Assembly: GCF_002563715.1 (NCBI RefSeq) | Contig: NZ_PDJJ01000001.1 | Location: 3,224,001 to 3,288,000, forward strand | Source of the DNA: Isoptericola jiangsuensis | GTDB lineage: Bacteria > Actinomycetota > Actinomycetes > Actinomycetales > Cellulomonadaceae | Length of the DNA: 64,000 nt | Direction: 5' to 3' | Shown: positions 2,494 through 40,303 of the stretch, one piece after another | How positions within the stretch are numbered: position 1 is the first letter of the stretch | How the letters are laid out: each line of letters starts with the position of its first letter | The notes under the pieces: model-generated | What the model was told of the DNA's origin: nothing | Database searches by the model: none | The model's input: only the letters and a program-made list of their open reading frames with translations | Made by a program: the position numbers and the translations under genes

Positions 2494-2551
2494 TTCACCC
2501 GGGCGCGGCCCTGTTTCATCCTCCCCGCCCGACGCCGCACGATGCCAGTCT
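2494..2551 (+). promoter_or_regulatory. Island promoter 1: TTCACCC/TTCATCC direct repeat plus -10 box
   Basis: TTCACCC at 2494 and TTCATCC at 2515 are direct repeats 21 nt apart. A -10-like CAGTCT starts at 2546, 31 nt after the second box and 13 nt before the ATG at 2559, so the transcript would be essentially leaderless. It belongs to the recurrent island promoter architecture; here the box-to--10 distance is about one helical turn shorter than in most others. Confidence 0.55.
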
Positions 2552-2558
2552 GGGGAGC

Positions 2559-3760
2559 ATGTCGACGCCGTCGGACCCGGCCGCGCCCGAGACGAAGCCC
2601 CGCTTCCACTCGGTCGACGCGCTCCGCGGCGTCGCGGCGCTCGCCGTGGTGCTGTTCCACCTGCTGCGCAACTCCCCGCAGGCCGACACACTCGCCGCGA
2701 CCTTCCCGGCCCCGTACGTGACGGCGTCGGACTACGCCCGCGGCGGCGTCGCCGTGTTCTTCGTCCTCTCCGGGCTCGTCATCACCTACACGGTGCGCGA
2801 CCTCGGCCGCCGACCCCGCGACGCGCTGCGGTACTCGGCTCGCCGGCAGCTGCGCCTCGACCCGCCGTACTGGGCGATGATGGCCGTCGTCCTGGCGATC
2901 GCGGCGGCCGAACGTCTCGTGCCGGGCCTGGACTACCGGTCGATCGGCGCGGCCGACGTGGCGGCCAACGCCGTCTACGTCCAGGGGTTCGCCGCGGCGA
3001 CGCCGGTGCTCGCCGTCGCTTGGACGCTGTGCCTGGAGGTGCAGTTCTACCTCGTGATCGTGCTGCTGGTGCTCCTGGCCGGTCGCCTGCCCCACGGCGA
3101 CGACGTCACCGCGCGCCGTCGGACGGTGCGGTGGACCGCGTGGACGCTCGGCGCCGCCTCGCTGGTGCTCCTCGCGACGGGGACGAGCACCGGGCCGTGG
3201 TTCCTCGGCACCTGGTGGATGTTCTGCCTCGGGGCGACCGTGGCGTGGTACCTCGTCGGCGACGTCGGCCCCGCCACGCTCGGCGTCGCCCTGGGCGTCG
3301 TCGCCCTCGCCGTCGCGGTCGAGACCGCGACAGGGGCGGCCGACCCGTGGCGCACCGAGTGGTTCGCCTGGACGACGGCGGCGCTCCTCGCCGTCCTCGT
3401 CGCCACCGGCCGGCTCGGGGTGCGGCCCTGGGGCTGGCTGATCTTCCTCGGGACGATCTCCTACTCCCTCTACCTCGTGCACCTGCCGTCATCGACACCG
3501 TGATGGCCGCCGCCTACAAGGTGCTCGGTGACGGCCCCGGTCCCGCGCTGGCGGCCTACGCCGTGGGTCTCGGGGCCGCCGTCGGCGCCGCCGTGCTGCT
3601 GCACCGCTGGGTCGAGCGGCCCGCGATCCGGCTGTCGCGCGCGCTGACCACGGGCAGCCGGGCCGAGGTGTCGGCCCGCGTGACGGCGTTCGCGGGCCGG
3701 TGGCGGCCGTCCGTCGCGCTGCGCCGGTCCCCCGGCCCCGCGGCACCGGACGAGGCGTAA
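2559..3760 (+). CDS. Acyltransferase-3 family membrane protein, interrupted by an apparent 1-nt frameshift
   Basis: Integral-membrane O-acyltransferase of the OafA/acyltransferase-3 family, which transfers acyl (often acetyl) groups to surface polysaccharides. The ATG at 2559 gives MSTPSDPAAPETKPRFHSVDALRGVAALAV, with the family HSVDALRGVAALAVVLFH opening and ten or so hydrophobic segments. The frame reaches a TGA at 3501-3503 right after SYSLYLVHLP. The normal continuation (VIDTVMAAAYKVLGDG, ending ERPAIRLSR) is present in the -1 frame and runs to 3760. One missing base near 3486-3488 would restore a protein of about 400 residues. It could be a real mutation that inactivates the last helices, or a base-calling error in a C/G run. 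It is the first gene of the island. Confidence 0.8.
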
Positions 3761-3779
3761 CGCCGGCCCTGCGCCCACG

Positions 3780-3825
3780 TTCACCCGCCCTCGGCGAGGC
3801 GGCGCCCGCAGGCCGCCGATAGCCT
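3780..3825 (+). promoter_or_regulatory. Island promoter 2: TTCACCC box plus TAGCCT -10
   Basis: A single TTCACCC at 3780 lies 40 nt upstream of TAGCCT at 3820. I see no good second copy 21 nt upstream. The predicted transcription start is near 3832, so this transcript, unlike most in the island, would have a leader of about 200 nt before the ATG at 4029. Confidence 0.5.
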
Positions 3826-4028
3826 CGAGGAGAACCCCCGTCCGCAGGACGGCCCGGCTCCGGGTCGCTCACCGGACGGCACGGACCACGGCGAGGACGC
3901 CGGACGTCGTGCCACGGGGCGCTCGTGACGGAGCGAGCCGGGAGCGGACCTGCCGCCCCCGCACCGGGCCGTCGGTCGCGCCCCCGGCCGGCTCGCCGGC
4001 CCGCGCCGGCGAGCACGACGAGGGAACG
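3826..4028 (+). other. Long 5' leader of the GMC oxidoreductase gene
   Basis: Between the predicted transcription start and the ATG at 4029 lie about 200 nt with no convincing gene. A small perfect hairpin (CCGTCC-GCA-GGACGG, 3838-3852) sits at its start. In-frame upstream codons could give a longer protein from 3909, but that extension (PRGARDGASRERTCRP...) looks non-coding and has no family similarity I recognise. I recognise no known riboswitch. Confidence 0.35.
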
Positions 4029-5597
4029 ATGCTGGTCACGAGCGACGCGGAGCTGCCCGACCTGAGCCGGACCGACGTGTGCGTCGTCGGCGGCGGGGCG
4101 GCCGGGATCGCGCTGGCCACCGAGCTCGCCGGGAGCGGGCTGCGCGTGGTCGTCCTCGAGGAGGGCGGGCCGACCGCGGACACCGCGCAGCGCGAGGCGT
4201 ACGAGGTCGCCCCGGGCGCGCCGCCCACCCTGGGGACGGCGGGCGGACGACGGCTCTTCCTCGGCGGCAACTCCAACCACTGGTACGGCAACTGCCGCCC
4301 CCTCGACCGGGAGGACTTCGCCGCCCGCCCCTGGATCCCCGGCAGCGGGTGGCCGATCACCCGCGACGACCTCGACCCCCACTACCGCCGCGCCCAGGAG
4401 CTCTGCGGGCTCGGCGACCTGCGGACCTACGAACCGGACCGGGTGGCCCAGGCGCTGGCGCGCCGTCACGGGCCCGCGCTGCTGGACTCCGCCACCCTGG
4501 AGACGCGGATCGAGCAGACCACGCCCGAGTTCAGCCTCGCCGTGCTGCACGCCCGCACCCTGCGCCGGTCGCGCGACGTCGTCGTCCTGCTGGGCGTCCA
4601 CGTGACCGGCCTGGAGCGGGGGCGCTGCGGCGGTGTGCGCCGGGTGCGCGCCGTCCGGGCGTCCGGCGAGACCCTGACCGTCACCGCACGGCGCTACGTC
4701 CTGGCGGCGGGCGGCATCGAGAACGCGAAGATCCTGCTCGCCTCGCCGGGCGTGCCCGACGGCGCGACCCGCGACAACGTCGGCCGCTACTTCCAGGAGC
4801 ACTGGTACTACGTCTTCGACGCGTTGCTGCCCGACCGCGACAACCTGCGGCTCTACCACGTGGGCCGCGGCCGCCACGTCGACGAGCTCGGCGACCGACG
4901 GCAGCGGATCGACGGCGCGCACGTCTGGGCACAGCTCGTGCTCGCCGCGGACGTCCTCGCCGAGCACCGCCTCCCCGGCCTGGCGGTGTGGTTCCAGGAC
5001 GGCGGCGCCCCGGCGGCGCTGCGTGCCCTCAAGCACGCGCCACGACGACCCGGCCCCCTCCTCGCGGCCGCGGCGGGCGTCGCGCGACGGCCCGGGCACG
5101 TCGCGGGCTACGGCGCCCGCCGGCTCCTGCGCCACCCCAACCCGTCGCGGCGGCTCGCGATGATCGCCCAGATCGAGCAGGTGCCGGACCCCGCGAGCAG
5201 GCTCCGCCTCACCGACGCCCGCGACCCGTGGGGGCGGCCGCACGTGGCGCTCGACACCCGGCTCGACGCGACGCAGCGGGCGGACCACGCCACGGCGCTG
5301 CGCCTCGCGGGTCGCGCGCTGGGCGTCGACGGCGACGCCCTCGCCTCCTCGATGCAGGACAAGTACGCCGCGGGCGACCTCGGCTTCTACTTCCACCACA
5401 CCGGCACCACCCGGATGGGACGCGACCCGGCGGGCAGCGTCGTCGACCGGCACTGCCGGGTGCACGGGACGGACAACCTGTACGTCGTGGGGAGCTCGGT
5501 GTTCCCCACCAGCGGCACCGCCGAGCCCACGCTCACCGTCGTGGCGCTCGCCGCCCGGCTCGCGGACCACCTCGTGTCCCTCGGCCGGGTGGGGTGA
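4029..5597 (+). CDS. GMC-family FAD-dependent oxidoreductase
   Basis: Flavoprotein of the glucose-methanol-choline oxidoreductase family, 522 residues, acting on an alcohol or sugar substrate that cannot be named from sequence. The N-terminus has the dinucleotide-binding motif VCVVGGGAAGIALATELAGSG and the acidic end of the second strand (VVVLEEGG). The C-terminus has the family GTTRMG and NLYVVGSSVFPTSGTAEPT motifs with catalytic-region histidines (FYFHHTG). The ATG at 4029 follows GAGGGA at good spacing and puts the GxGxxG motif at the expected place near the N-terminus. It lies in the island between an acyltransferase and the convergent GDP-sugar genes, so oxidation of a polysaccharide sugar is plausible but inferred. 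Confidence 0.85.
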   Translation: MLVTSDAELPDLSRTDVCVVGGGAAGIALATELAGSGLRVVVLEEGGPTADTAQREAYEVAPGAPPTLGTAGGRRLFLGGNSNHWYGNCRPLDREDFAARPWIPGSGWPITRDDLDPHYRRAQELCGLGDLRTYEPDRVAQALARRHGPALLDSATLETRIEQTTPEFSLAVLHARTLRRSRDVVVLLGVHVTGLERGRCGGVRRVRAVRASGETLTVTARRYVLAAGGIENAKILLASPGVPDGATRDNVGRYFQEHWYYVFDALLPDRDNLRLYHVGRGRHVDELGDRRQRIDGAHVWAQLVLAADVLAEHRLPGLAVWFQDGGAPAALRALKHAPRRPGPLLAAAAGVARRPGHVAGYGARRLLRHPNPSRRLAMIAQIEQVPDPASRLRLTDARDPWGRPHVALDTRLDATQRADHATALRLAGRALGVDGDALASSMQDKYAAGDLGFYFHHTGTTRMGRDPAGSVVDRHCRVHGTDNLYVVGSSVFPTSGTAEPTLTVVALAARLADHLVSLGRVG

Positions 5598-5615
5598 CCC
5601 CGCCCGGCCCCGGCG

Positions 5616-6575
5616 TCAGACCGCGAGCAGCTCCAGGTCGTGCCGCACCATGCGGGCGACGATCTCCTCGAACGCGACCGTCGGCCGCCAGCCCAGCACC
5701 CGCTCGGCACGCGCGGGGTCGCCCACCTGCAGGGCGGGATCGACCGGGCGGACGAACCGCGGGTCGATCTCCACCCGGTCGCGCCAGTCGTCGACCCCGG
5801 CCGCCGCGAACGCCGCCGCGACGAACTCCTCCACGGAGTGCGTCCGCCCGGTCGCCACCACGAAGTCGTCCGCGACGTCGTGCCGCGCCGCGCGGACCAT
5901 CGCGTCGACGTACTCCGGGGCCCAGCCCCAGTCCCGCCGGGCCGCGAGGTTCCCGAGCGCCAGCGTGCCGCCACCGTCGTGCGCGATCCGCGCCACCTGC
6001 GCCGTGATCTTGCGCGTGACGAACGTCGTCGGACGCCGCGGCGACTCGTGGTTGTACAGGACGCACGACGACACCCCGAGCCCCCGGGACCGGAACACCG
6101 CCGCCATCTGGTGGGCGTACGCCTTCGCCGCCCCGTAGGGCGACACGGGACGCACCGGCGTGGACTCGTCCTGTGGGGACCGGACCGGCGAGCCGAAGAT
6201 CTCCGCGCTGGACGCCTGGACCACGCGCACCGGCGACCCCGTGCGCTCCTGCGCCGCCCACGACGCCTCGAACAGCGCGACCGCACCGAGGCCCGACACC
6301 TCGCCCGTCAGCACCGGCTGCTCCCACGACTGCGCGACCGAACTCACCCCGCCGAGGTTGTAGACCTCCGACGGGCCGACGGCCCGCACGAGCGCGGCGA
6401 GACCGTCCCGGTCGCGCAGGTCGCCCTCGTGGAGCGTCACCTCCGCCGGGAGGGACGCGGGACGGCCGTCACCGCGCGTCACCAGGCCGTGGACCTCGCA
6501 GCCCTCGGCGACCAACCGTTCCGCCAGGTACGACCCGTCCTGGCCCGTGACACCCGTGACGAGCGCGACCGTCAC
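5616..6575 (-). CDS. GDP-mannose 4,6-dehydratase-like SDR epimerase/dehydratase (paralogue)
   Basis: Extended short-chain dehydrogenase, 319 residues, with NAD(P)-binding TGVTGQDGSYLAERL at the N-terminus, a SSAEIFG active-site strand, and the YGAAK catalytic Tyr-Lys pair. NHESPRRPTTFVTRKI is a GDP-mannose dehydratase signature. Its GTG start at 6575 abuts the TGA of the upstream dehydratase with no gap, so the two are translationally coupled. With a dedicated dehydratase next door, this copy may reduce or epimerise the 4-keto intermediate (giving GDP-rhamnose, -fucose or -talose type products) or be a second dehydratase. Sequence alone does not decide. Confidence 0.8.
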   Translation of the reverse strand: MTVALVTGVTGQDGSYLAERLVAEGCEVHGLVTRGDGRPASLPAEVTLHEGDLRDRDGLAALVRAVGPSEVYNLGGVSSVAQSWEQPVLTGEVSGLGAVALFEASWAAQERTGSPVRVVQASSAEIFGSPVRSPQDESTPVRPVSPYGAAKAYAHQMAAVFRSRGLGVSSCVLYNHESPRRPTTFVTRKITAQVARIAHDGGGTLALGNLAARRDWGWAPEYVDAMVRAARHDVADDFVVATGRTHSVEEFVAAAFAAAGVDDWRDRVEIDPRFVRPVDPALQVGDPARAERVLGWRPTVAFEEIVARMVRHDLELLAV

Positions 6576-7562
<987 letters not shown>

Positions 7563-7634
7563 GTCCGTCCGCCCATCCGCGTCGATCCTGCGGCGCCGCC
7601 ACGCGCGGCCCGCTCGGCTGTGGAAACACCAGTC

Positions 7635-7701
7635 ACACTAGACACGGCACCCCGCGAGCGGACCCCTGCGCCCGGGTGAACTGCCGCCCCGGCCGGGTGA
7701 A
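7635..7701 (-). promoter_or_regulatory. Island promoter 3: TTCACCC pair plus TAGTGT -10 (for gmd)
   Basis: On the minus strand, perfect TTCACCC boxes start at 7701 and 7680, exactly 21 nt apart. A TAGTGT -10 box starts at 7640, 40 nt after the second box. The transcript would carry a leader of about 65 nt before the gmd ATG. This is one of the two cleanest examples of the motif. Confidence 0.62.
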
Positions 7702-7737
7702 TCCACCGCGGCCCGCGACCCGCACCGGAGCCCCGAA

Positions 7738-7782
7738 TTCACCCCTCCAGCCATCGACCCCCCGGCGACGGCCGACGACAAT
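7738..7782 (+). promoter_or_regulatory. Island promoter 4: TTCACCC box plus GACAAT -10 (for the PAP2 gene)
   Basis: TTCACCC at 7738 lies 39 nt upstream of GACAAT at 7777. The -10 box starts 13 nt before the GTG start at 7790, predicting a leaderless mRNA. It is divergent to island promoter 3, and the two share a 227-nt intergenic region. Confidence 0.5.
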
Positions 7783-7789
7783 CACAGGT

Positions 7790-8464
7790 GTGACGACACG
7801 GCCGGGGGGGCGTGCACGGGACCTGCTGCGAGCCGCTGCGCTCGCGGTCACCTTCGCGCTCCTGTACGTCGTGGGGGTCCTCAGTCCGTGGGGGCAGCGC
7901 GCCGACGAGTTCCTGCTCGGGTTCGTCGCCGGACGCCTCGGGCTGCCCGGGCCCGTCGCCGGGATCGTGCGCGAGGCCGTCGTCGTCGCCCTCGCGGCGC
8001 TCGTCGTCGCCCTGGGCCTGCTCGCGCTGCGCCACGGACGCTGGACCGCGACCGGCGGCATGGTGCTGCTCTGCCTCGCCGCGCCCGCGCTCAGCGTCTG
8101 GCTGCGCGACGTCCTGCTGGCGCGCCCGTTCCACGACGAGACCTACGGCTACGCGTACAACACCTACCCCAGCACCCACGTCACCGCCGTCGCGGTCCTC
8201 GGCGTCGCGGTCCTCGTGCTGTGGCCGTCGCGCACCCTGCGCCGGCACACCGTGGTCCGCCGCACCGTGCTCGCCGTCGTCGTCCTCGCCTGCCTCGCCA
8301 ACGTCGTGGCGTTCGCCCACCGGCCGGCCGACGTCGTCGGGTCCCTCCTGCTCGTCGCGAGCCTCGCATCGTTGCTCGCAGCAGCGATGCCGGGCACGTT
8401 CCGCCCGGCGCGGCGGCGATTTCACCCGGCACCCCAGGAGAGTTCACCCGTACCCGCCGACTGA
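7790..8464 (+). CDS. PAP2-superfamily membrane phosphatase
   Basis: Membrane phosphatase of the PAP2/acid phosphatase superfamily, 224 residues. It has several hydrophobic helices and the three family motifs in order: RDVLLARP, YPSTHVTA (Thr in place of the usual Gly of PSGH), and the final H-RPADVVGS. In polysaccharide clusters such enzymes can dephosphorylate polyprenyl (pyro)phosphate and so recycle the lipid carrier; that role is inferred. The GTG at 7790 is chosen because it follows the -10 box at leaderless spacing and directly precedes the first conserved region; upstream in-frame sequence looks non-coding. Confidence 0.75.
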   Translation: MTTRPGGRARDLLRAAALAVTFALLYVVGVLSPWGQRADEFLLGFVAGRLGLPGPVAGIVREAVVVALAALVVALGLLALRHGRWTATGGMVLLCLAAPALSVWLRDVLLARPFHDETYGYAYNTYPSTHVTAVAVLGVAVLVLWPSRTLRRHTVVRRTVLAVVVLACLANVVAFAHRPADVVGSLLLVASLASLLAAAMPGTFRPARRRFHPAPQESSPVPAD

Positions 8465-8487
8465 GCCGCTCACCCGCGGCGTAGCGT
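8421..8487 (+). promoter_or_regulatory. Island promoter 5: double TTCACCC plus TAGCGT -10
   Basis: Perfect TTCACCC boxes at 8421 and 8443 (22 nt apart) lie 61 and 39 nt upstream of TAGCGT at 8482, which starts 12 nt before the ATG at 8494. A third, weaker CTCACCC sits at 8469. The first box overlaps the end of the PAP2 gene, so this promoter lies partly inside the upstream coding sequence. A leaderless transcript is predicted. Confidence 0.6.
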
Positions 8488-8493
8488 CCTGAC

Positions 8494-10572
8494 ATGGCTT
8501 CCCGACAGGCGCGCAGCGCGGCAGTTCTGGCCCTCGGACTGATCGCCGCGAGCCTCTCGGCACCGGCGGTCGCCGTGGTCGACCTCGCCGCCCAGGACAC
8601 CCCCTCCCAGCAGGTCACGTGGGACTGCACGGGCTCCCCGTGCCCCTGGGGACCGTCGACCGCCGGCAACGCCGCGGTCTGGTCCGACGGGACCACCGCC
8701 CGCTACGGCTACACCACGTCCGTGGCGGTCTACCTGCCCGCGGCCTCGGCGCTCGGGCGGACGATCACCGTCACCTCCGGCAACGCGTCGGTCTACGCGG
8801 GTCCGGCCGACAGCCCCCACCGCGCCCTCGCCCACCTGGCGTCGGGCGACGCCTACACCGTCAGCGGGCTGGACGCCGGCGACATGCTCTCCCTCCAGAA
8901 CGACGGCGGCTCCTTCACCTACACGATCGAGGCCGCCGCACCCGCGCCCGAGCCGACGCCCGACCCCACCCCGGAGCCGTCCGTCGAGCCCACGCCCGAG
9001 CCGTCGGACGAACCGTCCGTCGAACCCACGCCGACCACGGAGCCCTCGGTCGAGCCCACCGTCGAGCCCACGCCGACCGTGGAGCCCTCGGCGGAGCCGA
9101 CACCCCAGCCGTCGGACGAACCGAGCGCCGAACCGTCCGTCGAGCCCACGCCCGAGCCGTCGGTCGAGCCCACACCGACCACGGAACCCTCGGCGGAGCC
9201 GACATCCGAGCCCTCGACGACGCCGACGGTCACGCCGACGTCGGAACCGTCCACCGCACCGAGCGCGGACCTCTCGTCGCAGTCCGTGACCTGGACCTGC
9301 ACGGGCAACAGCTGCCCGTGGGGAGGCCAGCTGTCGGGCAACGCGGGGGTGTGGCCCGACGGCGTGTCGACCCGGTACGGGTACACCACGTCCGTCGCGA
9401 TCTACCTGCCGGCCGCCGCGGCGAACGGCACCACGATCACGGTGACGTCCGGTTCCGCCGGGATCTACGCCGGTCCCGTCGACAGCCCGCACCGGTCGCT
9501 CGCCCAGCTCGCGACCGGCGAAGGCCACGCGATCGACGGGCTCGCGTCCGACGAGGTGATCTCCATCCAGAACGACGGCGGTCCGTTCACCTACACGGTC
9601 GCCGCGACGGTCGAGCCCAGCCCGGAGCCGACGCCCTCACCGACGCCGAGCACGGAGCCCAGCCCCGAGCCGAGCACCGGACCGACGCCCTCCCCCGAGC
9701 CGTCGACCGAGCCGTCCGCCGGCGCGGGCACCCCGTCGCAGGCGGTGACGTGGACCTGCGCCGGCGCGAGCTGCCCGTGGGGCGACCAGCTCTCCGGCAA
9801 CGCCGTCGCCTGGCCGGAGTCCACGGGTGCCCTGAGCACCCGCCACGGCTACACCACCTCCGCGGCGATCTACCTGCCCGCCGAGGTCGCGAACGGTGAC
9901 ACCGTCACCGTCGTGAGCGGCTCGGCGGCGCTGTACGCCGGCACGCCGACGGGTTCGCACCGGCAGGTCGGCCAGGCCTCCGCGGGCGAGTCGGTGACGA
10001 TCGACGGCCTCGCGGCGGGCGAGGTGCTCTCGGTCCAGAACGACGGCAGCGCCTTCGCGTACGTCCACACCAGCGGGGAGCCGACCGAGCCCACGCCGGA
10101 GCCCACCCCGACGTCCGAGCCCACGCCCGACCCGACGCCGACGACCCCGCCCGACGCGGTCGTCATGCAGTCGACCCTCGCGCTGTGGCACTGCACGGCG
10201 TTCGCGGGCTGCGAGAACGACTGGGCACCCTGGTCCGGCGGTGCGGTGTCGTGGCCGTCGTGGGCGGCGTACCCGAACAACGACCGGCAGGGGTCGAACG
10301 CCCGCACCGTGGAGTCGCTCGACGGCGAGACCCTCTACCCGTACATGGGCGAGTGGGCGGACGGCTGCGAGATCCTCGTCCTCGAGGGTGACGTGCTGGT
10401 CATCGAGTGGGAGCGCGGCACGGACGTGTGGCGGTCCACGTACCTCAGCCCCGGCGACAGCTACACGATCGACCTCCAGCCGGGTGAGGACGGCGCGATG
10501 ATCGAGACGCCGGACACCCCGACGTCGTTCACGGTGGCGCTGTCGAGCTGCACGCCGCAGCCGCTGCCCTGA
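8494..10572 (+). CDS. Secreted protein with three copies of a Cys-containing domain on Pro/Glu/Thr-rich linkers, function unknown
   Basis: Protein of 692 residues that I cannot assign to a known family. A signal peptide ([20 protein letters not shown]... with an APAVA cleavage region) starts it. Three homologous domains follow at about residues 38-148, 263-368 and 415-525. Each opens with VTW-C-TG--CPWG (two cysteines four residues apart), then GYTTS-A-YLPA and QNDG--F-Y motifs near its end. They are separated by repeats of the EPTPEPS type, typical of extracellular linkers in cell-surface and polysaccharide-degrading proteins of this group. A different C-terminal domain (556-692) has four cysteines and many tryptophans. 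There is no LPXTG motif and no terminal membrane helix. The small beta-rich-looking units suggest binding to polysaccharide or cell surface; this is inference. It has its own TTCACCC promoter and terminator. Confidence 0.8.
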
Positions 10573-10582
10573 CGCCCGACGA

Positions 10583-10625
10583 GACGACGGCGGCCGCCCC
10601 GAGGATCGGGGCGGCCGCCGTCGTC
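10583..10625. terminator. Bidirectional intrinsic-type terminator
   Basis: A perfect 20-bp stem (10583-10602 with 10606-10625) with a 3-nt GGA loop lies between the convergent secreted-protein and glycosyltransferase genes. There is no T-run, as is common for terminators in high-GC actinobacteria. Confidence 0.8.
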
Positions 10626-10644
10626 CGTGTGCAGTGCGAACGGT

Positions 10645-12761: not shown

Positions 12762-12777
12762 CGGTTCGGTCCGGGGT

Positions 12778-14364: not shown

Positions 14365-15263
14365 CGGGACGCCGCGACCTTCTCCACGGCCTCGGGGCGG
14401 CCGCCCCGGAACGCGACCTCACGGAACCCGAGAAGGTTCCCGACGAGCCGCCCGGACCGGTCCGGACGGCTGCGGTCCCCCAGCCGCAACGTGTTCGAGC
14501 CCAGGTAGCGCCACCAGTCGTGCACCATGTTGCCGGCGGACTTGGTTCCCTTGCGCCACATGTGGAACGGGTTGACGATCTGGGCGAACCCGAGGGCCCG
14601 ACCGTTCACCCGACCGGAGCCGACGGCGAGGTGCGCGGCCACGCAGCCCCAGTAGTGCACCACCCGGCCGTGCGCGTGGCACCGGACCGCGAAGTCGGTG
14701 TCCTCCTGCCAGGCGTACAGGCGCATGCGCTCGTCGAACGGTTCGCGCAGCGCGACGTGCCCGCGCGTCGTCATGTTGCAGCCGTAGGTCCCGCCGATGT
14801 CCTTGAGGAGGGAGGACTCCGGTGCCGCTGAGATGGCCGCGCGCGCCTCCTCCGGCGACAGCTCGCGGCCGAGCGCCGCACCGTCGACCACGACCAGGCC
14901 CGTGAGGAGCACGACGTCGGGCTCGCGCCGCATCACGTCGCGCAACCGCTCGAAGTAGTCCGGGGCCAGCAGGATGTCGTCGTCCAGGTACGTGACCAGG
15001 TCGGGGACCGGGTCGATGGACCGCAGCCCCGTGTTCCGCTGGACGGTCGAGCCGCGCTCCGAGACCACGACCCGCACCCCGTCCCGGGCGGCGAGCCCCG
15101 CCGGGACGTCCTCGGTGCCCGCGACGCTGAGCACCACCAGGTCCGCGGGCACGGTCTGCTCGAGGAGCGCCTCGACCGTCCGGCCGAGGAGCCCCGGACG
15201 GCGGGTGCTGGCGATGATCACGACGTGGTCGAGCCGCGTCGACGAGCCGGGTGGGTGCGTCAC
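14361..15263 (-). CDS. GT2-family glycosyltransferase
   Basis: GT-A glycosyltransferase of 300 residues, first gene of the minus-strand operon ending at 10645. It has a nucleotide-binding N-terminus (LDHVVIIASTRRPGLLGRTVEALLEQT), a donor/metal motif LVTYLDDDILLAPDYFERL, and a later acidic motif YAWQEDTDFAVRCHAHGR typical of ED(T/Y)xF regions. Likely a cytosolic, membrane-associated transferase that adds a sugar during repeat-unit assembly. Start ATG at 15263; the upstream region is shared with the divergent GT4 gene at 15376. I see no clear TTCACCC box in its own orientation. Confidence 0.85.
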   Translation of the reverse strand: MTHPPGSSTRLDHVVIIASTRRPGLLGRTVEALLEQTVPADLVVLSVAGTEDVPAGLAARDGVRVVVSERGSTVQRNTGLRSIDPVPDLVTYLDDDILLAPDYFERLRDVMRREPDVVLLTGLVVVDGAALGRELSPEEARAAISAAPESSLLKDIGGTYGCNMTTRGHVALREPFDERMRLYAWQEDTDFAVRCHAHGRVVHYWGCVAAHLAVGSGRVNGRALGFAQIVNPFHMWRKGTKSAGNMVHDWWRYLGSNTLRLGDRSRPDRSGRLVGNLLGFREVAFRGGRPEAVEKVAASR

Positions 15264-15313: not shown

Positions 15314-15369
15314 TTCAGCCGGAGCCGTCGACTTTTCACCCCCGCGCCGACGGCCCCGGTGCCTAGGCT
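15314..15369 (+). promoter_or_regulatory. Island promoter 6: TTCAGCC/TTCACCC pair plus TAGGCT -10
   Basis: TTCAGCC at 15314 and TTCACCC at 15335 are 21 nt apart. TAGGCT at 15364 lies 29 nt after the second box, about one helical turn closer than in most other island promoters, and 12 nt before the ATG at 15376 (leaderless). Confidence 0.58.
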
Positions 15370-15375
15370 CGGGCC

Positions 15376-16569
15376 ATGGCCGTCCCGGTAGGCAGTCACG
15401 TGCACGTGATCACCCCTGGTGACCACTTCTCGCCGTCAACGGGCAGCGCCGTGCCGACCGTCGTCCACGGGCTGGCCGGCGCCACGCCCGAGGGAGCGCC
15501 CCGCACGCGCGTCGCCGTCGCGGAGGGGACCTACCCGGACCACTACCCGACGGCCGAGGTGGTCCCCTACCCGCCCGCCGCCGCGCACCGGTCGGACCGC
15601 TACCGCGACCTCGCCGCCTCCCGCCTGGGTCTGGCGCGGGGCGGCGCCCGCCGCACCCTCGCGCCCGCCGTGGCGGACCAGGAGCGGTGGCCGCCCTCCG
15701 TCGTGGTCGGGCACAACATGCCGCAGCTCGTCGGGCTCGTCGACACCGACCGGCACGTCCCGGTGCTGTACGCGCACAACGAGCTGCTGCGCTCCTACGG
15801 GGCGCGGGAGGCCGGCCGCACGCTCGACCCGGCGGGTGGGATCGTGTGCGTGAGCGCCTACGTCGCCGAACGCACGGCGGAGCGGCTCCCGCCCCGCCTG
15901 CGCGACCGGGTCGTGGTGGTCCACAACGCGGTCGACACCACGCTGTTCGCCCCCGACGACACCCCGGCCGGGCACGACGGCCTGCACGTCGTGTTCGTCG
16001 GGCGGATGCTGCCCGACAAGGGCCCCGACCTCCTCGTGGAAGCCCTGGTCCGACTCGCCCGGCCCGACGTGCGGGCCACGTTCGTGGGCACCACGAACTT
16101 CGCTCCCGGCGCACCGCTGTCGACCTACGAGGAGTCCCTGCGCGCCGCGGCGAGCCCGCTCGGCGACCGGGTCCGGTGGTTGCCGTTCCGGCCGCGGGCG
16201 GACGTCGCGGCGATCCTGCGGACCGCCGACGTGGTCGTGGTGCCGTCCCGCTGGGCGGAGCCGTTCGCCCTCACCGTCCTGGAGGGCATGGCGTCGGGCG
16301 CGGCCGTCGTGGCGGCACGCGTGGGGGGGATCCCCGAGGCCACGGGCGACGCCGGCGTCCTGGTGGCGCCCGGGTCGCCCGACGACCTGGCGCAGGCGAT
16401 CGAGCACCTCGCCGACGACCCGGTGCACCGCCGTCGCGTGCAGGCCCGGGGGCTCGCGCACGCCCGGGCGCACGACTGGCGGGCCGCGCGGCGCCGGTTC
16501 GACGAGGTCCTCGCCGAGCTGCGCATCACCGGCGGCTCCCCCGTCCCGTCCTCCGAGGTCGCTCGGTGA
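15376..16569 (+). CDS. GT4-family glycosyltransferase
   Basis: GT-B transferase of 397 residues. The N-terminal domain begins VGSHVHVITPGDHFSPSTGS. The C-terminal domain shows VVFVGRMLPDKGPDLLVEAL and the donor-binding EX7E region (RWAEPFALTVLEGMASGAAV). The start ATG sits directly at the predicted transcription start. The stop overlaps the GTG of the following acyltransferase by 4 nt, giving a two-gene operon. Exact sugar specificity is unknown. Confidence 0.85.
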   Translation: MAVPVGSHVHVITPGDHFSPSTGSAVPTVVHGLAGATPEGAPRTRVAVAEGTYPDHYPTAEVVPYPPAAAHRSDRYRDLAASRLGLARGGARRTLAPAVADQERWPPSVVVGHNMPQLVGLVDTDRHVPVLYAHNELLRSYGAREAGRTLDPAGGIVCVSAYVAERTAERLPPRLRDRVVVVHNAVDTTLFAPDDTPAGHDGLHVVFVGRMLPDKGPDLLVEALVRLARPDVRATFVGTTNFAPGAPLSTYEESLRAAASPLGDRVRWLPFRPRADVAAILRTADVVVVPSRWAEPFALTVLEGMASGAAVVAARVGGIPEATGDAGVLVAPGSPDDLAQAIEHLADDPVHRRRVQARGLAHARAHDWRAARRRFDEVLAELRITGGSPVPSSEVAR

Positions 16570-24997: not shown

Positions 24998-25063
24998 TTC
25001 ACCCGGGCGGGCCGGAGAATCACCCGACCCCTCCCGGCCCGGTCCCCCGATCGGCCCTAGCCT
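24998..25063 (+). promoter_or_regulatory. Island promoter 7: TTCACCC/ATCACCC pair plus TAGCCT -10
   Basis: TTCACCC at 24998 and ATCACCC at 25019 are 21 nt apart, 60 and 39 nt upstream of TAGCCT at 25058. That box starts 12 nt before the ATG at 25070 (leaderless). A clean example of the island architecture. Confidence 0.62.
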
Positions 25064-25069: not shown

Positions 25070-25621
25070 ATGCGAGTCGAGACCACCCGCCTGGACGGGG
25101 TCATGCGCCTGCTGCCGACCCCGCACCACGACGAGCGGGGCCTGTTCACGCGGACGTTCGACGCGGCCACGGCGGGCGAGGCGGGGCTCGACCCGGCCGC
25201 GTTCGTGCAGGACTCCCAGTCGCGCTCGCACCAGGGCGTGGTCCGGGGCATGCACGGCCGGGTGGGCGGTGGCGAGGCGAAGCTGGTCCGGGTCGCGCAC
25301 GGCGCGGTGCTCGACGTCGTGGTGGACGCCCGTCCCGGGTCCCCGACGTTCGGGCAGTGGGACGCGCACGTCCTCGACGACGCCGACTTCGTGGTCCTGT
25401 ACATCCCGCGCGGGTTCCTGCACGGGCACCAGACCCTCACCCCGACCGCCGACGTCTGCTACCGCATCGACGCCGAGCACGACCCGTCGGAGGACGTGGC
25501 CGCGCACCACCTCGACCCGGACCTGGCGATCGCGTGGCCCGCGCCCGTCACGACCGTCAGCGCCCGGGACCGCGCCGCGGGCACCTGGGCGGAGCTCGCC
25601 GCCCGCCTCACCGGGGGCTGA
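25070..25621 (+). CDS. RmlC-like dTDP/NDP-4-dehydro-sugar 3,5-epimerase
   Basis: Cupin-fold sugar-nucleotide epimerase of 183 residues. Family landmarks are HHDERGLFTRTFDAA, a region equivalent to SxxGVLRGLHYQ that here reads SHQGVVRGMHGR, EAKLVRVAHGAVLDVVVD and FVVLYIPRGFLHGHQTL. The active-site region departs from the classical LHYQ, so the substrate may differ from dTDP-4-dehydrorhamnose; in this context a CDP-linked ketosugar is more likely. It stands alone on the plus strand facing the minus-strand C-methyltransferase operon and its 3' end overlaps that operon's end by 14 nt. Confidence 0.83.
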   Translation: MRVETTRLDGVMRLLPTPHHDERGLFTRTFDAATAGEAGLDPAAFVQDSQSRSHQGVVRGMHGRVGGGEAKLVRVAHGAVLDVVVDARPGSPTFGQWDAHVLDDADFVVLYIPRGFLHGHQTLTPTADVCYRIDAEHDPSEDVAAHHLDPDLAIAWPAPVTTVSARDRAAGTWAELAARLTGG

Positions 25622-29130: not shown

Positions 29131-29166
29131 GACAGTCTCCTTGGATCGCCGACACGCGTCGCGACG

Positions 29167-29214
29167 ACGGTAACCGCCGGGCCGCGCCGACGAACAGCGC
29201 TGCACAGGGTGGAA
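29167..29214 (-). promoter_or_regulatory. Possible island promoter variant: TTCCACCC box plus TACCGT -10
   Basis: On the minus strand a TTCCACCC (one base longer than the usual box) ends its TCCACCC part from 29213, 41 nt upstream of TACCGT at 29172. The predicted start near 29160 gives a short leader containing the AAGGAGA site of the SDR gene. A weaker match to the motif, listed because the spacing agrees. Confidence 0.35.
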
Positions 29215-29232
29215 AACGCCCCGGGCGACTGA

Positions 29233-29280
29233 TTCACCCCCTGCACGGGTTCCACCCGTCACCCCGGCGGGAGACGATCT
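29233..29280 (+). promoter_or_regulatory. Island promoter 8: TTCACCC box plus CGATCT -10
   Basis: TTCACCC at 29233 lies 42 nt upstream of a -10-like CGATCT at 29275, which begins 11 nt before the ATG at 29286. A second, imperfect TTCCACCC lies at 29250. It drives the plus-strand operon of five genes to 35986. Confidence 0.5.
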
Positions 29281-29285
29281 GGCGC

Positions 29286-31262
29286 ATGAAGGTCTTGCGC
29301 GTCTCGCACAGCGCCGTCGTCGACGGCTGGCGGGAGCGCGAGCGGCAGCTGCGCCGGCTCGGCGTCGACGTCACCCTGCTGAGCGCCCGCGCCTGGCCGG
29401 AGGGCGGACGGACGGTGCCCCTCGTGCCCCGCCCCGGCGAACCGGTGCGGAGCGTGCGCACGGTCGGCACCCACCCGGCGCTGTTCCTCTACGACCCGCT
29501 CCCCGTGTGGCGCGCGCTCGGCGAGCCGCACGACCTGCTCGACCTCCACGAGGAGCCCTTCGCGCTGGCCACCGCCGAGGTGCTGGCCCTGCGCGCGCTG
29601 CGGCGGGCCGTCGACCGGCTGCGCGGCCGCGGCGGGCCGGCCGCGCCGTACCTCGTCTACAGCGCGCAGAACCTGCGCAAGCGGTACCCCTGGCCGTTCG
29701 GGGCGCTGGAGCGCGCCGTGCTGCGCCACGCGGGCGGCGCCCACACGTGCAACGACGATGCCGCCGCCCACCTGCGCCACAAGGGCCTCGCCGCACCCGC
29801 CGTGACGATCCCCCTCGGGGTCGACGTGGCCGGCCCGACCGCCGAGGCACCCGCCCCGCGGCGGGCACCGCAGCCCGGCGCGGACGTCATCGTGGGGTTC
29901 GCGGGCCGCCTCGAACCGCACAAGGGCGTCCGGGTGCTGCTGCGCGCCGTCGCCGACGAGCCGCGGCTGCGGCTGCGCGTCGCCGGCGGCGGCACCCTGG
30001 CCGACGAGGTGCGGGCCGCGGGCACCGCCCACGGCCGGACCGAGCTCCTCGGGCCGCTCGACGGCGCCGACCTGGAGGCGTTCTACCGGTCGCTCGACGT
30101 CCTCGCCGTGCCGTCCCTCACCACGCCCGGCTGGGTCGAGCAGTTCGGCCGGGTCGTCGTCGAGGCCATGGCGTGCGGCACCCCTGTCGTCGCGAGCGAC
30201 TCCGGCGCGCTGCCCGACCTCGTCGCCGACGCCGGTCTGCTCGTGCCGCCCGACGATCCGGCCGCGCTGGCCGCCGCGCTCCTGCGCGTCGCCGACGAGC
30301 CCGGCCTCGCCGCACGGCTCCGTGCCGCCGGCCACGACACCGCCGCCCGGTGCGCCTGGCCCGCCGTCGGCACCGCCTACCTCGACCTCTACCGGACGGT
30401 CCTCGCGCCGCCCGTCCCGACCGACCCGCCCGAGGTCGTCGTCGTCGCGTACGGCCGGCCCGACCTCCTGCGCGACGCCCTCGCCCCACTGGTCGGCAAG
30501 CTCACCCTCACGGTCGTCGACAACTCGTCACGCGACGACGTCCGCGAGGTGACCGAGCTCGCCGGCGGCCGCTACCTCGACCCGGGCCGCAACGGCGGGT
30601 TCGCCGCCGGGGTGAACCACGCTCTCGCGCACCGGCAGACCCCCGGGACCGACGTCCTCCTGCTCAACCCGGACGCCGTGGTCACCGCCGAGGGCGTGCT
30701 CGCGCTGCAGCGCGCGCTGCACGCGGACCCCCGCGCCGCGAGCGTCGGCCCCCGCCAGGTGGACGACGCCGGCACGCCCGCCCGGGTGACCTGGCCGTTC
30801 CCCTCCCCCGGCCGCGCCTGGCTGGAGGCCGTCGGCCTCGGGGGCGTCCCCGCCCGGCGCGGCCGCACGTTCGTCATCGGGTCCGTCCTGCTGCTGCGGG
30901 CCGAGGCCCTCGCCGAGGTCGGGGGCCTCGACGAACGGTTCTTCCTCTACTCCGAGGAGACCGACTGGGCGTACCGGGCCGTGCGGCGCGGCTGGCACCA
31001 CGACCTCGTCGACGACGTCGTCGCCACCCACCTGGGTGCCGCGACCAGCTCCGACGACGAGCGGCGCGACACCCACTTCCTGGCCTCCCTCGAGCGGTAC
31101 CTGCGCAAGCACCACGGTGCCGCCGGGTGGCAGCTCGCCCGGCTCGGGATGCTGGCCGGCGACGCCGCCCGCAGCGTCCTGCGGCGCGGCCGCGGCGGGA
31201 CCCGCTCCCACCTGCTGCGCACCGGACCCGTCGCCGCGGAGACCCGGATGGTCGCTCCGTGA
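29286..31262 (+). CDS. Two-domain glycosyltransferase: GT4 fused to GT2
   Basis: A 658-residue fusion. Residues 1 to about 375 form a GT-B transferase: [20 protein letters not shown] at the start, [19 protein letters not shown], and the EX7E-type [18 protein letters not shown]. Residues from about 385 form a GT-A transferase: [46 protein letters not shown] and [18 protein letters not shown]. The second half resembles rhamnosyltransferase-like GT2 enzymes. One polypeptide may therefore add two consecutive sugars. Its stop overlaps the GTG of the polymerase gene by 4 nt. Confidence 0.87.
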
Positions 31263-37112: not shown

Positions 37113-39067
37113 GGGGTGGCGCGCTTCGGGGCGCCGATCCCGGGCTCGGCCGGGCGGTGGAAGAACGCGATGCCGGCGCCGGACGTCTCACGGTCCGGCG
37201 CCGTGCCCGCCTCCGGCTGCTCCGGTGCGTCGTCCGGCGCGGGGTCGGCGGTCTGGTCGGCGGGTGCGGCGGGCCGCGGCGCGGGGGCACCCACCTGGGC
37301 CACCAGCACGGGCCGGAACCCGCCCGGACGGGGGTCGATCACGTCGACCCGGCGGGGGAAGCCCGTGTCCGGCAGCGCGAGCCGCGGGATCTGGACGGTG
37401 GCCAGGCTCGCCTCGGCGGCGGGCGCCGGGGAACCGTCGGCGGTGCGGGGGCGCGGGTCGGGCTCCGTGGCCGGCCCGGCCGCGGCGTCGGTGCGGTGGC
37501 GGGGCTCCGCCGGGACGTCGGCGGACGCGGCCGGGTCGGTGTCGACGTCGCGCTCGGCGTCCGTCCCGGCGTCCGGGCCCGCGACGTCCGTCACCGGTGT
37601 CCGCACGTCCCCCTCCTCGCCGTACGTCGAGGCGTAGGTGTCCCGGTGGTTGCTGGCCACGCCGACCAGCGCGACCCCGGCGAGGGCCACGTCGTTGGTG
37701 CGGAGCCGGTCCACGGCCCGGCCGAGGACGCCGCGGTCCGTGCGCCCGGCGGCGGCCAGCAGCACGGTCCCGTCGGCGTACCCGCCGAGGATCGTGGCGT
37801 CGGCGGCGGCGAGCACGGGCGGCGCGTCGACCACGACGATGTCGGCCTCGGCCCGCAGCGCCTCGACGAGGTCGCTCGCGGCCGTCGTGGCCAGGTAGTC
37901 GGCGGAGTCGAGCGGCTGGTCCGGCACGGGGAACAGCTCGAGGTTCGTGATGGTGGTGGGGCGCAGCCCGCGACCGGTGCCCTCCCACGTCGGCGGGGCG
38001 GGCAGCAGCTCGTCGATCTGGGGGCGGCGCAGGTCGCCGGACAGCACGATCGTGCGTCGCCCGGACAGCGCCCACGACACCGCGAGGTTCGCCGCGACGA
38101 ACGAGCGCGGCGCCGACGGGTCGGCCGCGGTCACCACGACGACGGCGTGGTCGCGCCGGGGCAGGCTGACCTGCACCGCGGTGCGCAGCTCGCGCACCGA
38201 CTCGGTGAACGGGGTCGCGGCCAGGCTCGCGACCGGCAGCACCTCCGTCTGCGCGAACGTCTTGAGGCTGGCGCGCAGGCCGGTCACCTCGGCGAGGATC
38301 GGGGCGTCCGCCGCCTCCGCCGCCTGCTCGACCGTGCGCACGCGCGTGTCGAGGCCGCGGCGCACGAACGCGATGCCGACACCGGCGGCGAGACCCGTCA
38401 GCAGGGCGATGCCCAGCACGCTGAGGCGGCCGAGCCCGACCGGGTCGGCCACGGCGGTCGCCGTCACCTGCCCGGGCTCCACGAGGGTCTGGTAGGCCGT
38501 CTTCTGCGCCGTCAGCACGTTGAGGGACTCCTCCCCCGTGCTCTGCAGCGCCGTCGCCTCCGGGTCGTTCGGCCGCGCCTTCAGCGTGTCGCGCGCCGCG
38601 ATGATCTGACTGCTCAGGGCGCTGATCTGCTCGTCGAGGGCGGCCACCTGCTCGTCGATGACGGCGGGCAGCTGCGCCACGTAGGCCGTGGCGTAGGCGT
38701 TCGCCGCGTCCGCCGCGAACTCGGCGGACGTGCTGGTCGCCGTGATGGTCATGGTCATCGTCGCGGCGTCGTACAGGGGCTCGACCTCCGCCCCGTGCAG
38801 CGTGCTGACGGGCACGTCGAGCGCCTCGGCCGCGGCCTGCTCCACCTCGGGCCCGACGACGACGGTCGGGTCCGGGTTGGCCGTCACGGCGGCCGTCCCC
38901 TCGGCACCGGCCGAGCCCGACGACGCGAGCTCGACGGTCGCCGTGGCCTGGTAGGTGATCTCCTGCCGGTCGGCGTACACGTAGCCCGCGCCCACGACGA
39001 GCACGACGGCCCCGAGCACGAACCACTTGCTCGCCCACACGACACGGAGGAACTCGCGCAGCGTCAT
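37109..39067 (-). CDS. Wzz/Wzc-like polysaccharide copolymerase with a degenerate tyrosine-kinase domain
   Basis: Membrane protein of 652 residues that sets chain length or export in Wzy systems. A first helix (KWFVLGAVVLVVGAGYVYAD), a periplasmic-type coiled region rich in DEQISALSS-like repeats and a second helix (VLGIALLTGLAAGVGIAFV) form the Wzz part. The cytoplasmic part aligns with BY-kinases, but Walker A reads VTAADPSAPRSFVAANLA instead of a GxGKS/T loop and Walker A' reads VLSGDLRRPQ; Walker B DIVVVDAPPVLAAADA is kept. Few tyrosines follow (DTYASTYGEEGD) before a Pro/Asp-rich tail. Kinase activity is therefore doubtful. Confidence 0.83.
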   Translation of the reverse strand: MTLREFLRVVWASKWFVLGAVVLVVGAGYVYADRQEITYQATATVELASSGSAGAEGTAAVTANPDPTVVVGPEVEQAAAEALDVPVSTLHGAEVEPLYDAATMTMTITATSTSAEFAADAANAYATAYVAQLPAVIDEQVAALDEQISALSSQIIAARDTLKARPNDPEATALQSTGEESLNVLTAQKTAYQTLVEPGQVTATAVADPVGLGRLSVLGIALLTGLAAGVGIAFVRRGLDTRVRTVEQAAEAADAPILAEVTGLRASLKTFAQTEVLPVASLAATPFTESVRELRTAVQVSLPRRDHAVVVVTAADPSAPRSFVAANLAVSWALSGRRTIVLSGDLRRPQIDELLPAPPTWEGTGRGLRPTTITNLELFPVPDQPLDSADYLATTAASDLVEALRAEADIVVVDAPPVLAAADATILGGYADGTVLLAAAGRTDRGVLGRAVDRLRTNDVALAGVALVGVASNHRDTYASTYGEEGDVRTPVTDVAGPDAGTDAERDVDTDPAASADVPAEPRHRTDAAAGPATEPDPRPRTADGSPAPAAEASLATVQIPRLALPDTGFPRRVDVIDPRPGGFRPVLVAQVGAPAPRPAAPADQTADPAPDDAPEQPEAGTAPDRETSGAGIAFFHRPAEPGIGAPKRATP

Positions 39068-40212
39068 CGGGCACCTCCCGCGACGGCCGGTGCCGAGAGC
39101 TCCTCGGCGACGATCTCCTGCAGCCTGCTGACGAACCGGTCCTCGCCGAACGACGCGCAGTGCTCCTGGATGACGTCGGGCGACCACGTTCTCGCCAGGA
39201 CGTCGGCGACGCCCTCGGCGACGTCCTGCGGAACGGGTGCCGCGAACAGCCGCCCGTTGCGCCCGTCGACCACGGTGTCCAGGAACCCGCCGGCGCGCAG
39301 GGCCGCCGTCGGCACGCCGAACGCGCCCGCCTCCAGCGGGGTCAGCCCGTAGTCCTCGTAGGACGCCGCGACGAGCGCCGCGGCGTGCCGGTACGCCCAG
39401 CGCATCTCGGCGTCGTCGACCCGCCCCGCGAACGTCACCAGGCCGGGTGCGGTGCGGGCCGCGATCTCCTCCAGCCGTGCGCGGTCCGGGCCGCCCCCGA
39501 CGACGACGAGGCGCTGCCCGAGCAGGCCCGCCGCCTCCACGACGACGTCGACGTTCTTGTAGGGCAGCAGACGGGCCACGCACAGCAGGTACCCGGGCTC
39601 GACGCCCGCCAGGGGCGTCTCGGGGCCGTCGGGGCGGCAGGCGGCGGGCGGCGGCACGACCTCGGCCTCGATGCCGTAGACCCGCCGGATGGTCCGCTGG
39701 ATCTCGGTGGAGGTGGTGACGTAGCGGTCGGCGCGCTCCGCGGCGCGGGCGTCCCAGCGGCGCAGCGCGGGGCTGATCGCGGCCAGCGCCGCCGCCACGG
39801 CACGGTCGCGCAGGCCCCGGACCTGCTCGTCGGCCCCGCCGAGGTAGCGGTGCGGCTGGTACAGCCAGCGCGCGGGCGCGTAGCAGTAGACGACGGTGCG
39901 GCGGGCGCCGCGGTAGCCGTGGGCCCAGCCGCTGGAGCTCGCGAGCAGGACGTCGGCCTCGACCCGCTGGGCGTCCACCGCGGGGGCGAGCAGCGGCAGC
40001 GCGAGGCGGTGGTGGCGGCGCAGCACGGAGAACCGGTCGAGGCGTCCCGGCCGCAGCTCGACGTCGGCGAACTCGGGGTGGGTGCCGTCCGGGTCGTACA
40101 GCGTCGTGTACATGGGGGAACCGGGGAACGCCCGCGCCATGAGCAGGGCCACACGTTCCGCCCCGCCGCGCTGGGTCGCGTAGTCGTGCGCCAGGGCCAC
40201 GCCAGCCGTCAT
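39064..40212 (-). CDS. GT4-family glycosyltransferase
   Basis: GT-B transferase of 382 residues, first gene of the operon with the copolymerase. Landmarks are VALAHDYATQRGGAERVALL, VVYCYAPARWLYQPHRYL (similar to WbaZ-like mannosyltransferases), LCVARLLPYKNVDVVVEAAG and SYEDYGLTPLEAGAFGVPTA carrying the EX7E-type motif. ATG at 40212 is preceded by GGGAGG at 6 nt, better than an upstream in-frame GTG at 40227. Because of its place with the copolymerase it may act early in repeat-unit assembly, but this is not shown. Confidence 0.87.
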   Translation of the reverse strand: MTAGVALAHDYATQRGGAERVALLMARAFPGSPMYTTLYDPDGTHPEFADVELRPGRLDRFSVLRRHHRLALPLLAPAVDAQRVEADVLLASSSGWAHGYRGARRTVVYCYAPARWLYQPHRYLGGADEQVRGLRDRAVAAALAAISPALRRWDARAAERADRYVTTSTEIQRTIRRVYGIEAEVVPPPAACRPDGPETPLAGVEPGYLLCVARLLPYKNVDVVVEAAGLLGQRLVVVGGGPDRARLEEIAARTAPGLVTFAGRVDDAEMRWAYRHAAALVAASYEDYGLTPLEAGAFGVPTAALRAGGFLDTVVDGRNGRLFAAPVPQDVAEGVADVLARTWSPDVIQEHCASFGEDRFVSRLQEIVAEELSAPAVAGGAR

Positions 40213-40256
40213 CCGAGCCTCCCGCACCGCCGGCCCGCAGGTCGGACCGCCCCCTC

Positions 40257-40303
40257 AGGCTAGGCGGTCGGGTGCGGCTGCGGGGAGTGCTTGCCCGGGT
40301 GAA
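40257..40303 (-). promoter_or_regulatory. Island promoter 9: TTCACCC box plus TAGCCT -10
   Basis: On the minus strand TTCACCC starts at 40303, 41 nt upstream of TAGCCT at 40262. Transcription would begin near 40250, leaving a leader of roughly 38 nt with a GGGAGG ribosome site. No convincing second box 21 nt further upstream is seen. Confidence 0.52.

What the first reader, a model, noticed from the sequence alone, without database searches (positions are those of the whole stretch)
2494..40303. A recurrent TTCACCC direct-repeat promoter defines an undescribed polysaccharide-island regulon
Nine intergenic regions of the island carry TTCACCC in the direction of the downstream gene: 2494/2515, 3780, 7701/7680 (minus), 7738, 8421/8443, 15314/15335, 24998/25019, 29233 and 40303 (minus). 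Five have two copies 21-22 nt apart, two helical turns. The promoter-proximal box starts 39-42 nt before a TAGNNT-like -10 in seven cases and 29-31 nt (one turn less) in two; no -35 consensus is seen. A 21-22 nt direct-repeat period upstream of a promoter lacking a -35 box is what LytTR-type response regulators (AgrA, ComE) use, although this consensus is different. No regulator gene is in the island. The nine units cover sugar-nucleotide, transferase, copolymerase, phosphatase and secreted-protein genes, so one factor could switch the whole pathway.
Basis: partly seen in the sequence, partly recalled or inferred. Interest (0 to 1): 0.85.

Follow-up and report, generated by a model that had tools for sequence, protein, structure and literature searches.

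The report
Clade-wide TTCACCC switch for surface polysaccharide
A short DNA word repeated on one face of the helix in front of almost every operon of a surface-sugar gene island looks like the docking site of one still unknown regulator of surface genes in a family of soil bacteria.

Summary
The motif is real. TTCACCC occurs 20 times in the window against 3.3 expected and tops the intergenic heptamers by z-score. All nine promoters exist, but only two carry exact doublets; the other three "pairs" have a one-mismatch partner. In 18 congeneric genomes (Isoptericola-like) 121 exact box pairs stand against 6 for the reversed control; 89 of 121 have periods of 11/12, 21/22 or 31/32, whole helical turns. 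The -10 keeps a fixed register: 32-34 nt (or one turn less) after a forward box, 38-39 nt after a reversed box, so one box can serve divergent promoters. In seven of 11 window promoters the start codon follows the -10 by 6-7 nt, as in leaderless mRNAs. Boxes recur in syntenic islands, before the priming sugar transferase outside the island, and before lasso-peptide-like and LPXTG genes. The factor is not identified. LytTR, SARP and BldM were not detected in complete genomes that carry the motif, and the PhoP box of the same genomes is distinct though related. Best reading: a clade-wide surface regulon run by one unidentified activator, perhaps of OmpR or NarL type. Experiments are needed.

The parts
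2494..2551 (+). box TTCACCC (2494) and partner TTCATCC (2515), period 21; -10 CAGTCT 2546-2551, ATG of g2 (acyltransferase_3) at 2559
3780..3825 (+). single box 3780-3786 and -10 TAGCCT 3820-3825 before g4 (GMC oxidoreductase); gene start uncertain
7635..7701 (-). exact doublet 7701-7695 / 7680-7674, period 21, and -10 TAGTGT 7640-7635 before g6-g5 (GDP-mannose dehydratase family); doublet and -10 also in L069 and L036
7738..7782 (+). single box 7738-7744, weak -10 GACAAT 7777-7782, GTG of g7 (PAP2-like, below the Pfam cut-off) at 7790
8421..8487 (+). exact doublet 8421/8443, period 22, -10 TAGCGT 8482-8487, ATG of g8 (secreted protein by its signal-like start) at 8494; doublet and -10 also before the related gene in L019
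15270..15320 (-). box TTCAGCC 15314-15320 read in reverse: weak -10 AACGAT 15275-15270, GTG of g12 (unit g12-g9) at 15263
15314..15369 (+). boxes 15314 (TTCAGCC) and 15335 (TTCACCC), period 21, -10 TAGGCT 15364-15369 (one turn closer), ATG of g13 (glycosyltransferase) at 15376; conserved in L069, not in L060
24954..25004 (-). box 24998 read in reverse: weak -10 AAGAAT 24959-24954 before g21-g15 (start 24918)
24998..25063 (+). boxes 24998 (TTCACCC) and 25019 (ATCACCC), period 21, -10 TAGCCT 25058-25063, ATG of g22 (dTDP-4-dehydrorhamnose 3,5-epimerase family) at 25070
29233..29278 (+). single box 29233, weak -10 GACGAT 29273-29278, ATG of g26 (two glycosyltransferase domains) at 29286; orientation not conserved in relatives
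40257..40303 (-). single box 40303-40297 and -10 TAGCCT 40262-40257 before g33-g31 (glycosyltransferases, Wzz-like); the related gene in L059 has two boxes

Best explanation
TTCACCC is the recognition heptamer of one trans-acting transcription activator, not yet identified, shared by Isoptericola and its family. One or more boxes lie upstream of promoters that have a -10 (TAGNNT and similar) but no recognisable -35. Paired boxes are spaced by one, two or three whole helical turns, so the bound units sit on one face of the DNA. The proximal box acts from about -52/-46 (forward; taking the first base of the -10 hexamer as -12), one turn closer, or reversed from about -57/-51, so one box can serve two divergent promoters. 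Bound factor would recruit RNA polymerase carrying the main sigma factor (inferred). The regulon is a cell-surface programme: sugar-nucleotide enzymes, glycosyltransferases, flippase or ABC export, Wzz-like protein, the priming sugar transferase, acyltransferases, LPXTG and secreted proteins, and in relatives lasso-peptide-like clusters. Shown by sequence: boxes, phasing, -10 registers, conservation, gene content. Inferred: a single factor, activation rather than repression, and any signal.
For: Exact pairs N14/15: 63 places in 58 relatives against 1 for the reversed control; 58 of the 63 in the 36 family genomes, 25 of which have one. Pair periods in 18 congeneric genomes: 11 (11), 12 (25), 21 (21), 22 (21), 31 (3), 32 (8), that is 89 of 121; reversed control 6 pairs; G000 alone 7 of 8, P 7e-5. 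Of 53 family doublets classed, 39 lie within 260 nt upstream of a same-strand gene start, 8 only behind a divergent start, 2 in a gene, 4 other. NANNNT start after the proximal box: forward, 27 at offset 33, 15 at 34, 8 at 32 and 17 at 21-23, for 115 boxes; reverse, 34 at 38 and 24 at 39, for 113 boxes; elsewhere about 2.2 per offset, maxima 7 and 9. TAGNNT: 28 of 39 within 1 nt of 22/33/44. Seven of 11 window promoters have the start codon 6-7 nt after the -10. Two to four exact boxes at the priming sugar transferase (PF02397 in L074; the others by similarity) in each of 12 loci looked at. The stronger model hits cluster in the islands. Eight stretches from named family genomes have the full pattern; in the seven whose next gene is in view it is a surface, sugar or secreted-looking gene by my reading.
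Against: No binding or expression data. The regulator was not found. Many counts are of orthologous promoters and not independent. 34 of 57 doublets failed a strict -10 test. 11 of 36 family genomes have no exact N14/15 pair. Four of the 11 window -10s (g7, g12, g21, g26) are only NANNNT matches. Operon g25-g23 has no clean box in the window. Some doublets face no gene, and the own-genome pair at 1399097 has no evident promoter. Gene starts are my own calls. Forward and reverse use could reflect two factors.
Confidence: 0.8

Rival explanations
1. The boxes are variant PHO boxes and PhoP (RegX3-like) itself runs the regulon under phosphate limitation.
For: The Streptomyces PHO unit is given as GTTCACCC (PMC7244524 passages), the same core. 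In 13 of 13 congeneric pstS promoters the second PHO unit GTTCA[CT]C ends 31 nt before TA[GA]CGT, close to the 32-34 seen here. A second pstS-like gene (L099) has TTCACCC units with a period of 11, one preceded by A. A phytase/GDPD gene belongs to the set.
Against: The same 13 pstS promoters have GTTCA-N6-GTTCA, a period of exactly 11 with G before TTCA; EPS boxes have G there in 12% (first box) and 28% (second) of 57 sites. Periods 12, 21 and 32 do not fit an 11-nt lattice, and 33 has no case in 121. The base profile next to the boxes shows no third unit 11 nt on.
Confidence: 0.15
2. Another response regulator of the OmpR or NarL/FixJ kind, conserved in the family, binds the heptamer.
For: PhoP (OmpR family) reads a nearly identical unit from a similar distance; BldM (NarL/FixJ) reads TCACCC half-sites (PMC4125116 passages). 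G000 has 11 Trans_reg_C places, GlnR-, PhoP- and MtrA-like among them by my reading, and 10 matches to BldM at E 1e-15.
Against: No candidate is linked to the boxes. The one OmpR regulator seen with boxes upstream (L125) has no close orthologue in G000, G003, G005, G012 or G013.
Confidence: 0.4
3. LytTR-type regulator.
For: Direct repeats about 21-22 nt apart upstream of promoters without an evident -35; the LytTR period is recalled.
Against: PF04397 below threshold in G003, G004, G006, G010 (at least 99% complete), which have strong sites. Periods of 12 and 32 and working reversed boxes also occur.
Confidence: 0.03
4. SARP (BTAD) activator: heptamers with a period of about 11.
For: Heptamer direct repeats with 4-bp spacers are described for SARP regulators (PMC5930380 passages).
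Against: BTAD not at E 0.001 in G001, G005, G008, G016 (at least 99% complete), which carry doublets. Period 12 exceeds 11.
Confidence: 0.03
5. Repressor sites or a nucleoid-protein pattern with no activating role.
For: Boxes occur in both orientations and in arrays.
Against: The -10s keep fixed registers downstream of the boxes, and no -35 was evident.
Confidence: 0.12

Closest known systems
PHO box of actinobacterial PhoP (OmpR family)
   Same: Core TTCACC(C), direct repeats, 31 nt (here 32-34) before a TAGCGT-type -10
   Different: Period 11 exactly and G before TTCA at pstS in the same genomes; here 12, 21/22, 32, no fixed G, and reversed boxes from another distance
BldM Group I/II sites of Streptomyces (NarL/FixJ family)
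   Same: Half-site TCACCC / GGGTGA
   Different: BldM sites are 16-bp palindromes or hybrid sites; here direct repeats; close BldM orthologues not found in the family
SARP / SARP-LAL operators (PimR type)
   Same: Heptamer direct repeats about one turn apart
   Different: Other heptamer (CGGCAAG for PimR), 10-11-nt units; BTAD not detected in some motif-bearing genomes
LytTR operators (AgrA, ComE; recalled)
   Same: Direct repeats two turns apart upstream of weak promoters
   Different: Other consensus; LytTR not detected in some motif-bearing genomes
BldC (MerR-like) repeats
   Same: Head-to-tail direct repeats of variable number
   Different: AATTXXXX(C) with 9-bp sites (PMC5859096 passages)

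Membership tests
PHO box / PhoP | two direct repeats with a period of 11 | tested here: not met
   period 11 in 11 of 121; 12, 21, 22, 32 in 75; no unit 11 nt on
PHO box / PhoP | G before TTCA as in 13 of 13 congeneric pstS promoters | tested here: not met
   (G in 12% and 28% of 57 sites); exception L099
LytTR regulator | a LytTR protein in every genome with the motif | tested here: not met
   none at E <= 0.001 in G003, G004, G006, G010 (and G007, 74% complete); one sub-threshold candidate in each of the four
SARP | a BTAD protein in every genome with the motif | tested here: not met
   none at E <= 0.001 in G001, G005, G008, G016 (and G007)
BldM | BldM orthologue present in the family | tested here: not met
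BldC | AT-rich AATTXXXX(C) repeats of 9 bp | tested here: not met
OmpR-family regulator other than PhoP | a conserved OmpR regulator binding the box | not testable with these tools
   candidates listed; no binding data
AraC family | half-sites with two contact regions, period 21 (recalled) | not tested
   no genome search left; single 7-bp contact and other periods speak against (inference)

The most novel reading that the evidence does not exclude
A clade-wide master regulon for the cell surface (polysaccharide, anchored proteins, lasso peptides) is run by an undescribed activator that reads single heptamers at any whole-turn spacing and in either orientation, with one exact -10 distance for each orientation.
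Probability: 0.5. Interest if true: 0.72.

Novelty: new variant of a known kind. Interest (0 to 1): 0.62.

Why it matters
I found no description of polysaccharide control of this kind in this group in the papers searched. A predicted operator with exact geometry makes the regulator directly catchable, links polysaccharide, lasso-peptide-like and surface-protein genes under one candidate switch, and gives a natural set of promoters for testing how helical face and orientation set activation.

Tried and rejected
Held unlikely as the factor: LytTR, SARP, BldM, BldC, the PHO box proper, FtsR (25-bp inverted repeat, PMC6683498 passages), and the OmpR regulator of L125. Tried without gain: regulators as downstream genes in 40 further loci; an AraC-type gene (L104) has a box pair upstream in G014, not tested elsewhere; the genes behind L105/L129, L132 and L043 stayed unclear. 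TetR next to the priming transferase in L074/L075 is missing in L076/L078. The model search was cut at its listing and is noisy above E about 1e-3. Outside the family the spaced pair is weak evidence: 54 of 296 class genomes hit (own included), reversed control in 13; I did not classify those hits. The full pattern gave 83 stretches in genome contigs: eight from named genomes of this family, L280 (see noticed), and 74 others, mostly far relatives, of which I looked only at L240. Of the 63 places, 57 were in hand; four of these lie outside the family and were not classed. Searches used the window and loci L001-L053, L059-L078 and L102-L141, duplicates removed, without the loci of G036, G037, G039 and G040 (L133 of G039 stayed). 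In one search a box counted only with a called gene start 40-200 nt (forward) or 45-200 nt (reverse) away and no further box within 45 nt.

Corrections to notes: early notes say Cellulomonas. 

Full report
What is there. The window is part of a 4.04-Mb single-contig genome, 74.7% G+C. Bases 2.5-40.3 kb hold a surface-polysaccharide island: GDP-mannose dehydratase family, dTDP-sugar epimerase family, glycosyltransferases, flippase-like protein, WbsX, Wzy-like and Wzz-like proteins, acyltransferases, pyruvyl transferase and a PAP2-like protein (30 of 33 genes scanned, none a transcription regulator by its Pfam matches; the Wzz and PAP2 scores lie just below Pfam's cut-offs). The family name Cellulomonadaceae (GTDB) is recalled.

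Is the motif more than chance? TTCACCC occurs 20 times against 3.3 in shuffles; 12 of the 20 start in the 7.5% of the window that is intergenic, and no other of 105 permutations exceeds 4. Exact doublets with N14/15 occur five times in the genome, reversed control 0, and 63 times in 58 relatives against 1. The excess belongs to the family: 58 places in its 36 genomes, 11 of which have none; 5 places in the 22 others. Across 296 class genomes the pair is found in 54, the window's own included, and the reversed control in 13, so outside the family the pair means little.

Helical phasing. For spacers of 4-34 nt, 18 congeneric genomes give 121 exact pairs (control 6). Periods of 11, 12, 21, 22, 31 and 32 hold 89 of them. 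Of eight pairs at period 36, five share one sequence and two another, and these look coding (not checked). In G000 alone 7 of 8 pairs are phased. Orthologues are counted repeatedly, so the pooled P value overstates the case.

Promoter registers. After the proximal forward box a NANNNT hexamer starts at 32-34 nt in 50 instances and at 21-23 in 17, for 115 boxes. After reversed boxes it starts at 38-39 nt in 58 instances, for 113 boxes. Other offsets average about 2.2 (a box may count at more than one offset and in both orientations). TAGNNT alone gives 28 of 39 within 1 nt of 22/33/44. A strict -10 test at the main register was passed by 23 of 57 doublets. In the window the boxes between g12/g13 and between g21/g22 fit both divergent promoters. 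In seven of 11 predicted window promoters (g2, g7, g8, g12, g13, g22, g26) the start codon follows the -10 by 6-7 nt, the leaderless arrangement, which supports these -10s. By my reading 11 of 12 island transcription units have a box in register, four of them (g7, g12, g21, g26) with a weak -10. The exception is g25-g23; in four of five relatives compared the same intergene has a box facing that operon. The 29233 box of g26 is therefore the weakest of the nine.

Regulon. In relatives the same boxes precede related genes in syntenic islands. They precede the priming sugar transferase outside the island in 12 loci looked at, two to four exact boxes each, the nearest 79-104 nt from the called start in 10 of the 12. 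Others: DUF4012 and LPXTG proteins, phytase/GDPD, an ABC-2 exporter and lasso-peptide-like clusters (short MYEAP... open frame without a Pfam match, Asn_synthase, Transglut_core3, PqqD; the lasso reading is mine). Named genomes outside the genus, Cellulosimicrobium and Cellulomonas sp. 73-92, have the full pattern before a cytidylyltransferase-like gene (my reading) and secreted-looking proteins.

Which factor? Tests were made by presence and absence. LytTR is not at E 0.001 in G003, G004, G006 and G010 (one weaker candidate in each). BTAD is not at E 0.001 in G001, G005, G008 and G016. BldM orthologues of 60-70% identity are in nine genomes of other families; the best family match is E 2.8e-41, 49% (query recalled). 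PhoP boxes at pstS are GTTCA-N6-GTTCA, 31 nt before the -10, in 13 of 13 congeneric promoters: close in core and position, different in lattice and first base. An OmpR regulator with boxes upstream (L125) has no close orthologue in G000, G003, G005, G012 or G013. Each absence depends on the search threshold, so a diverged member could be missed. OmpR regulators other than PhoP, NarL/FixJ and AraC proteins remain.

Mechanism. A factor bound at about -49 (forward) or -54 (reversed), with a second unit one to three turns upstream, fits contact-dependent recruitment of RNA polymerase at promoters lacking a -35. The 5-bp shift between orientations is about half a turn, as expected if an asymmetric protein presents its contact surface from the other side. 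This step is inference.

Prior work. Seven searches of the paper library listed nothing that describes such a regulon by title or abstract. Read as passages only: PMC4125116, PMC5859096, PMC5930380, PMC7244524, PMC6683498. Other papers were seen as listings only.

Noticed in passing
window 56107-56253: Tandem repeats of about 20 bp containing TGACTCA/TGAGTCA (GCGCTGAGTCACGGGGATCT-like) in an intergenic stretch; six exact TGASTCA copies.
   Followed up: no
L061 4739-7599, L069 5008-7288, L071 13373-15631: Lasso-peptide-like clusters beside the polysaccharide island carry the same boxes; three inverted TTCACCC-N6-GGGTGAA pairs (L066, L069, L071) lie between the PqqD-like gene and the precursor-like gene.
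   Followed up: partly
L125 2309-3251: An OmpR-type response regulator near receiver and Hpt-like (my reading) proteins has a box pair of period 12 upstream and a pectate-lyase-like gene divergently; no close orthologue in the window's genome.
   Followed up: partly
L280 5358: A record titled Sphaerisporangium cinnabarinum ATCC 31213 nearly matches Cellulosimicrobium funkei (L304) over the 68-nt pattern, and the next gene's first 70 residues are identical; possibly mislabelled or mixed.
   Followed up: no
L017 1501-2368 (G008): A protein with only MHYT domains, a presumed membrane sensor, stands under a box pair with TAGCCT 9 nt after the second box, an unusual register.
   Followed up: no
window 12777, 18386 and 44343: Three further TTCACCC boxes start in intergenic DNA without a clear forward promoter; 44343 lies in a TCACCCGGGTGA palindrome and has a weak reverse-register hexamer (GACCGT at 38) towards g37, a glycosyltransferase-like gene outside the island.
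   Followed up: no
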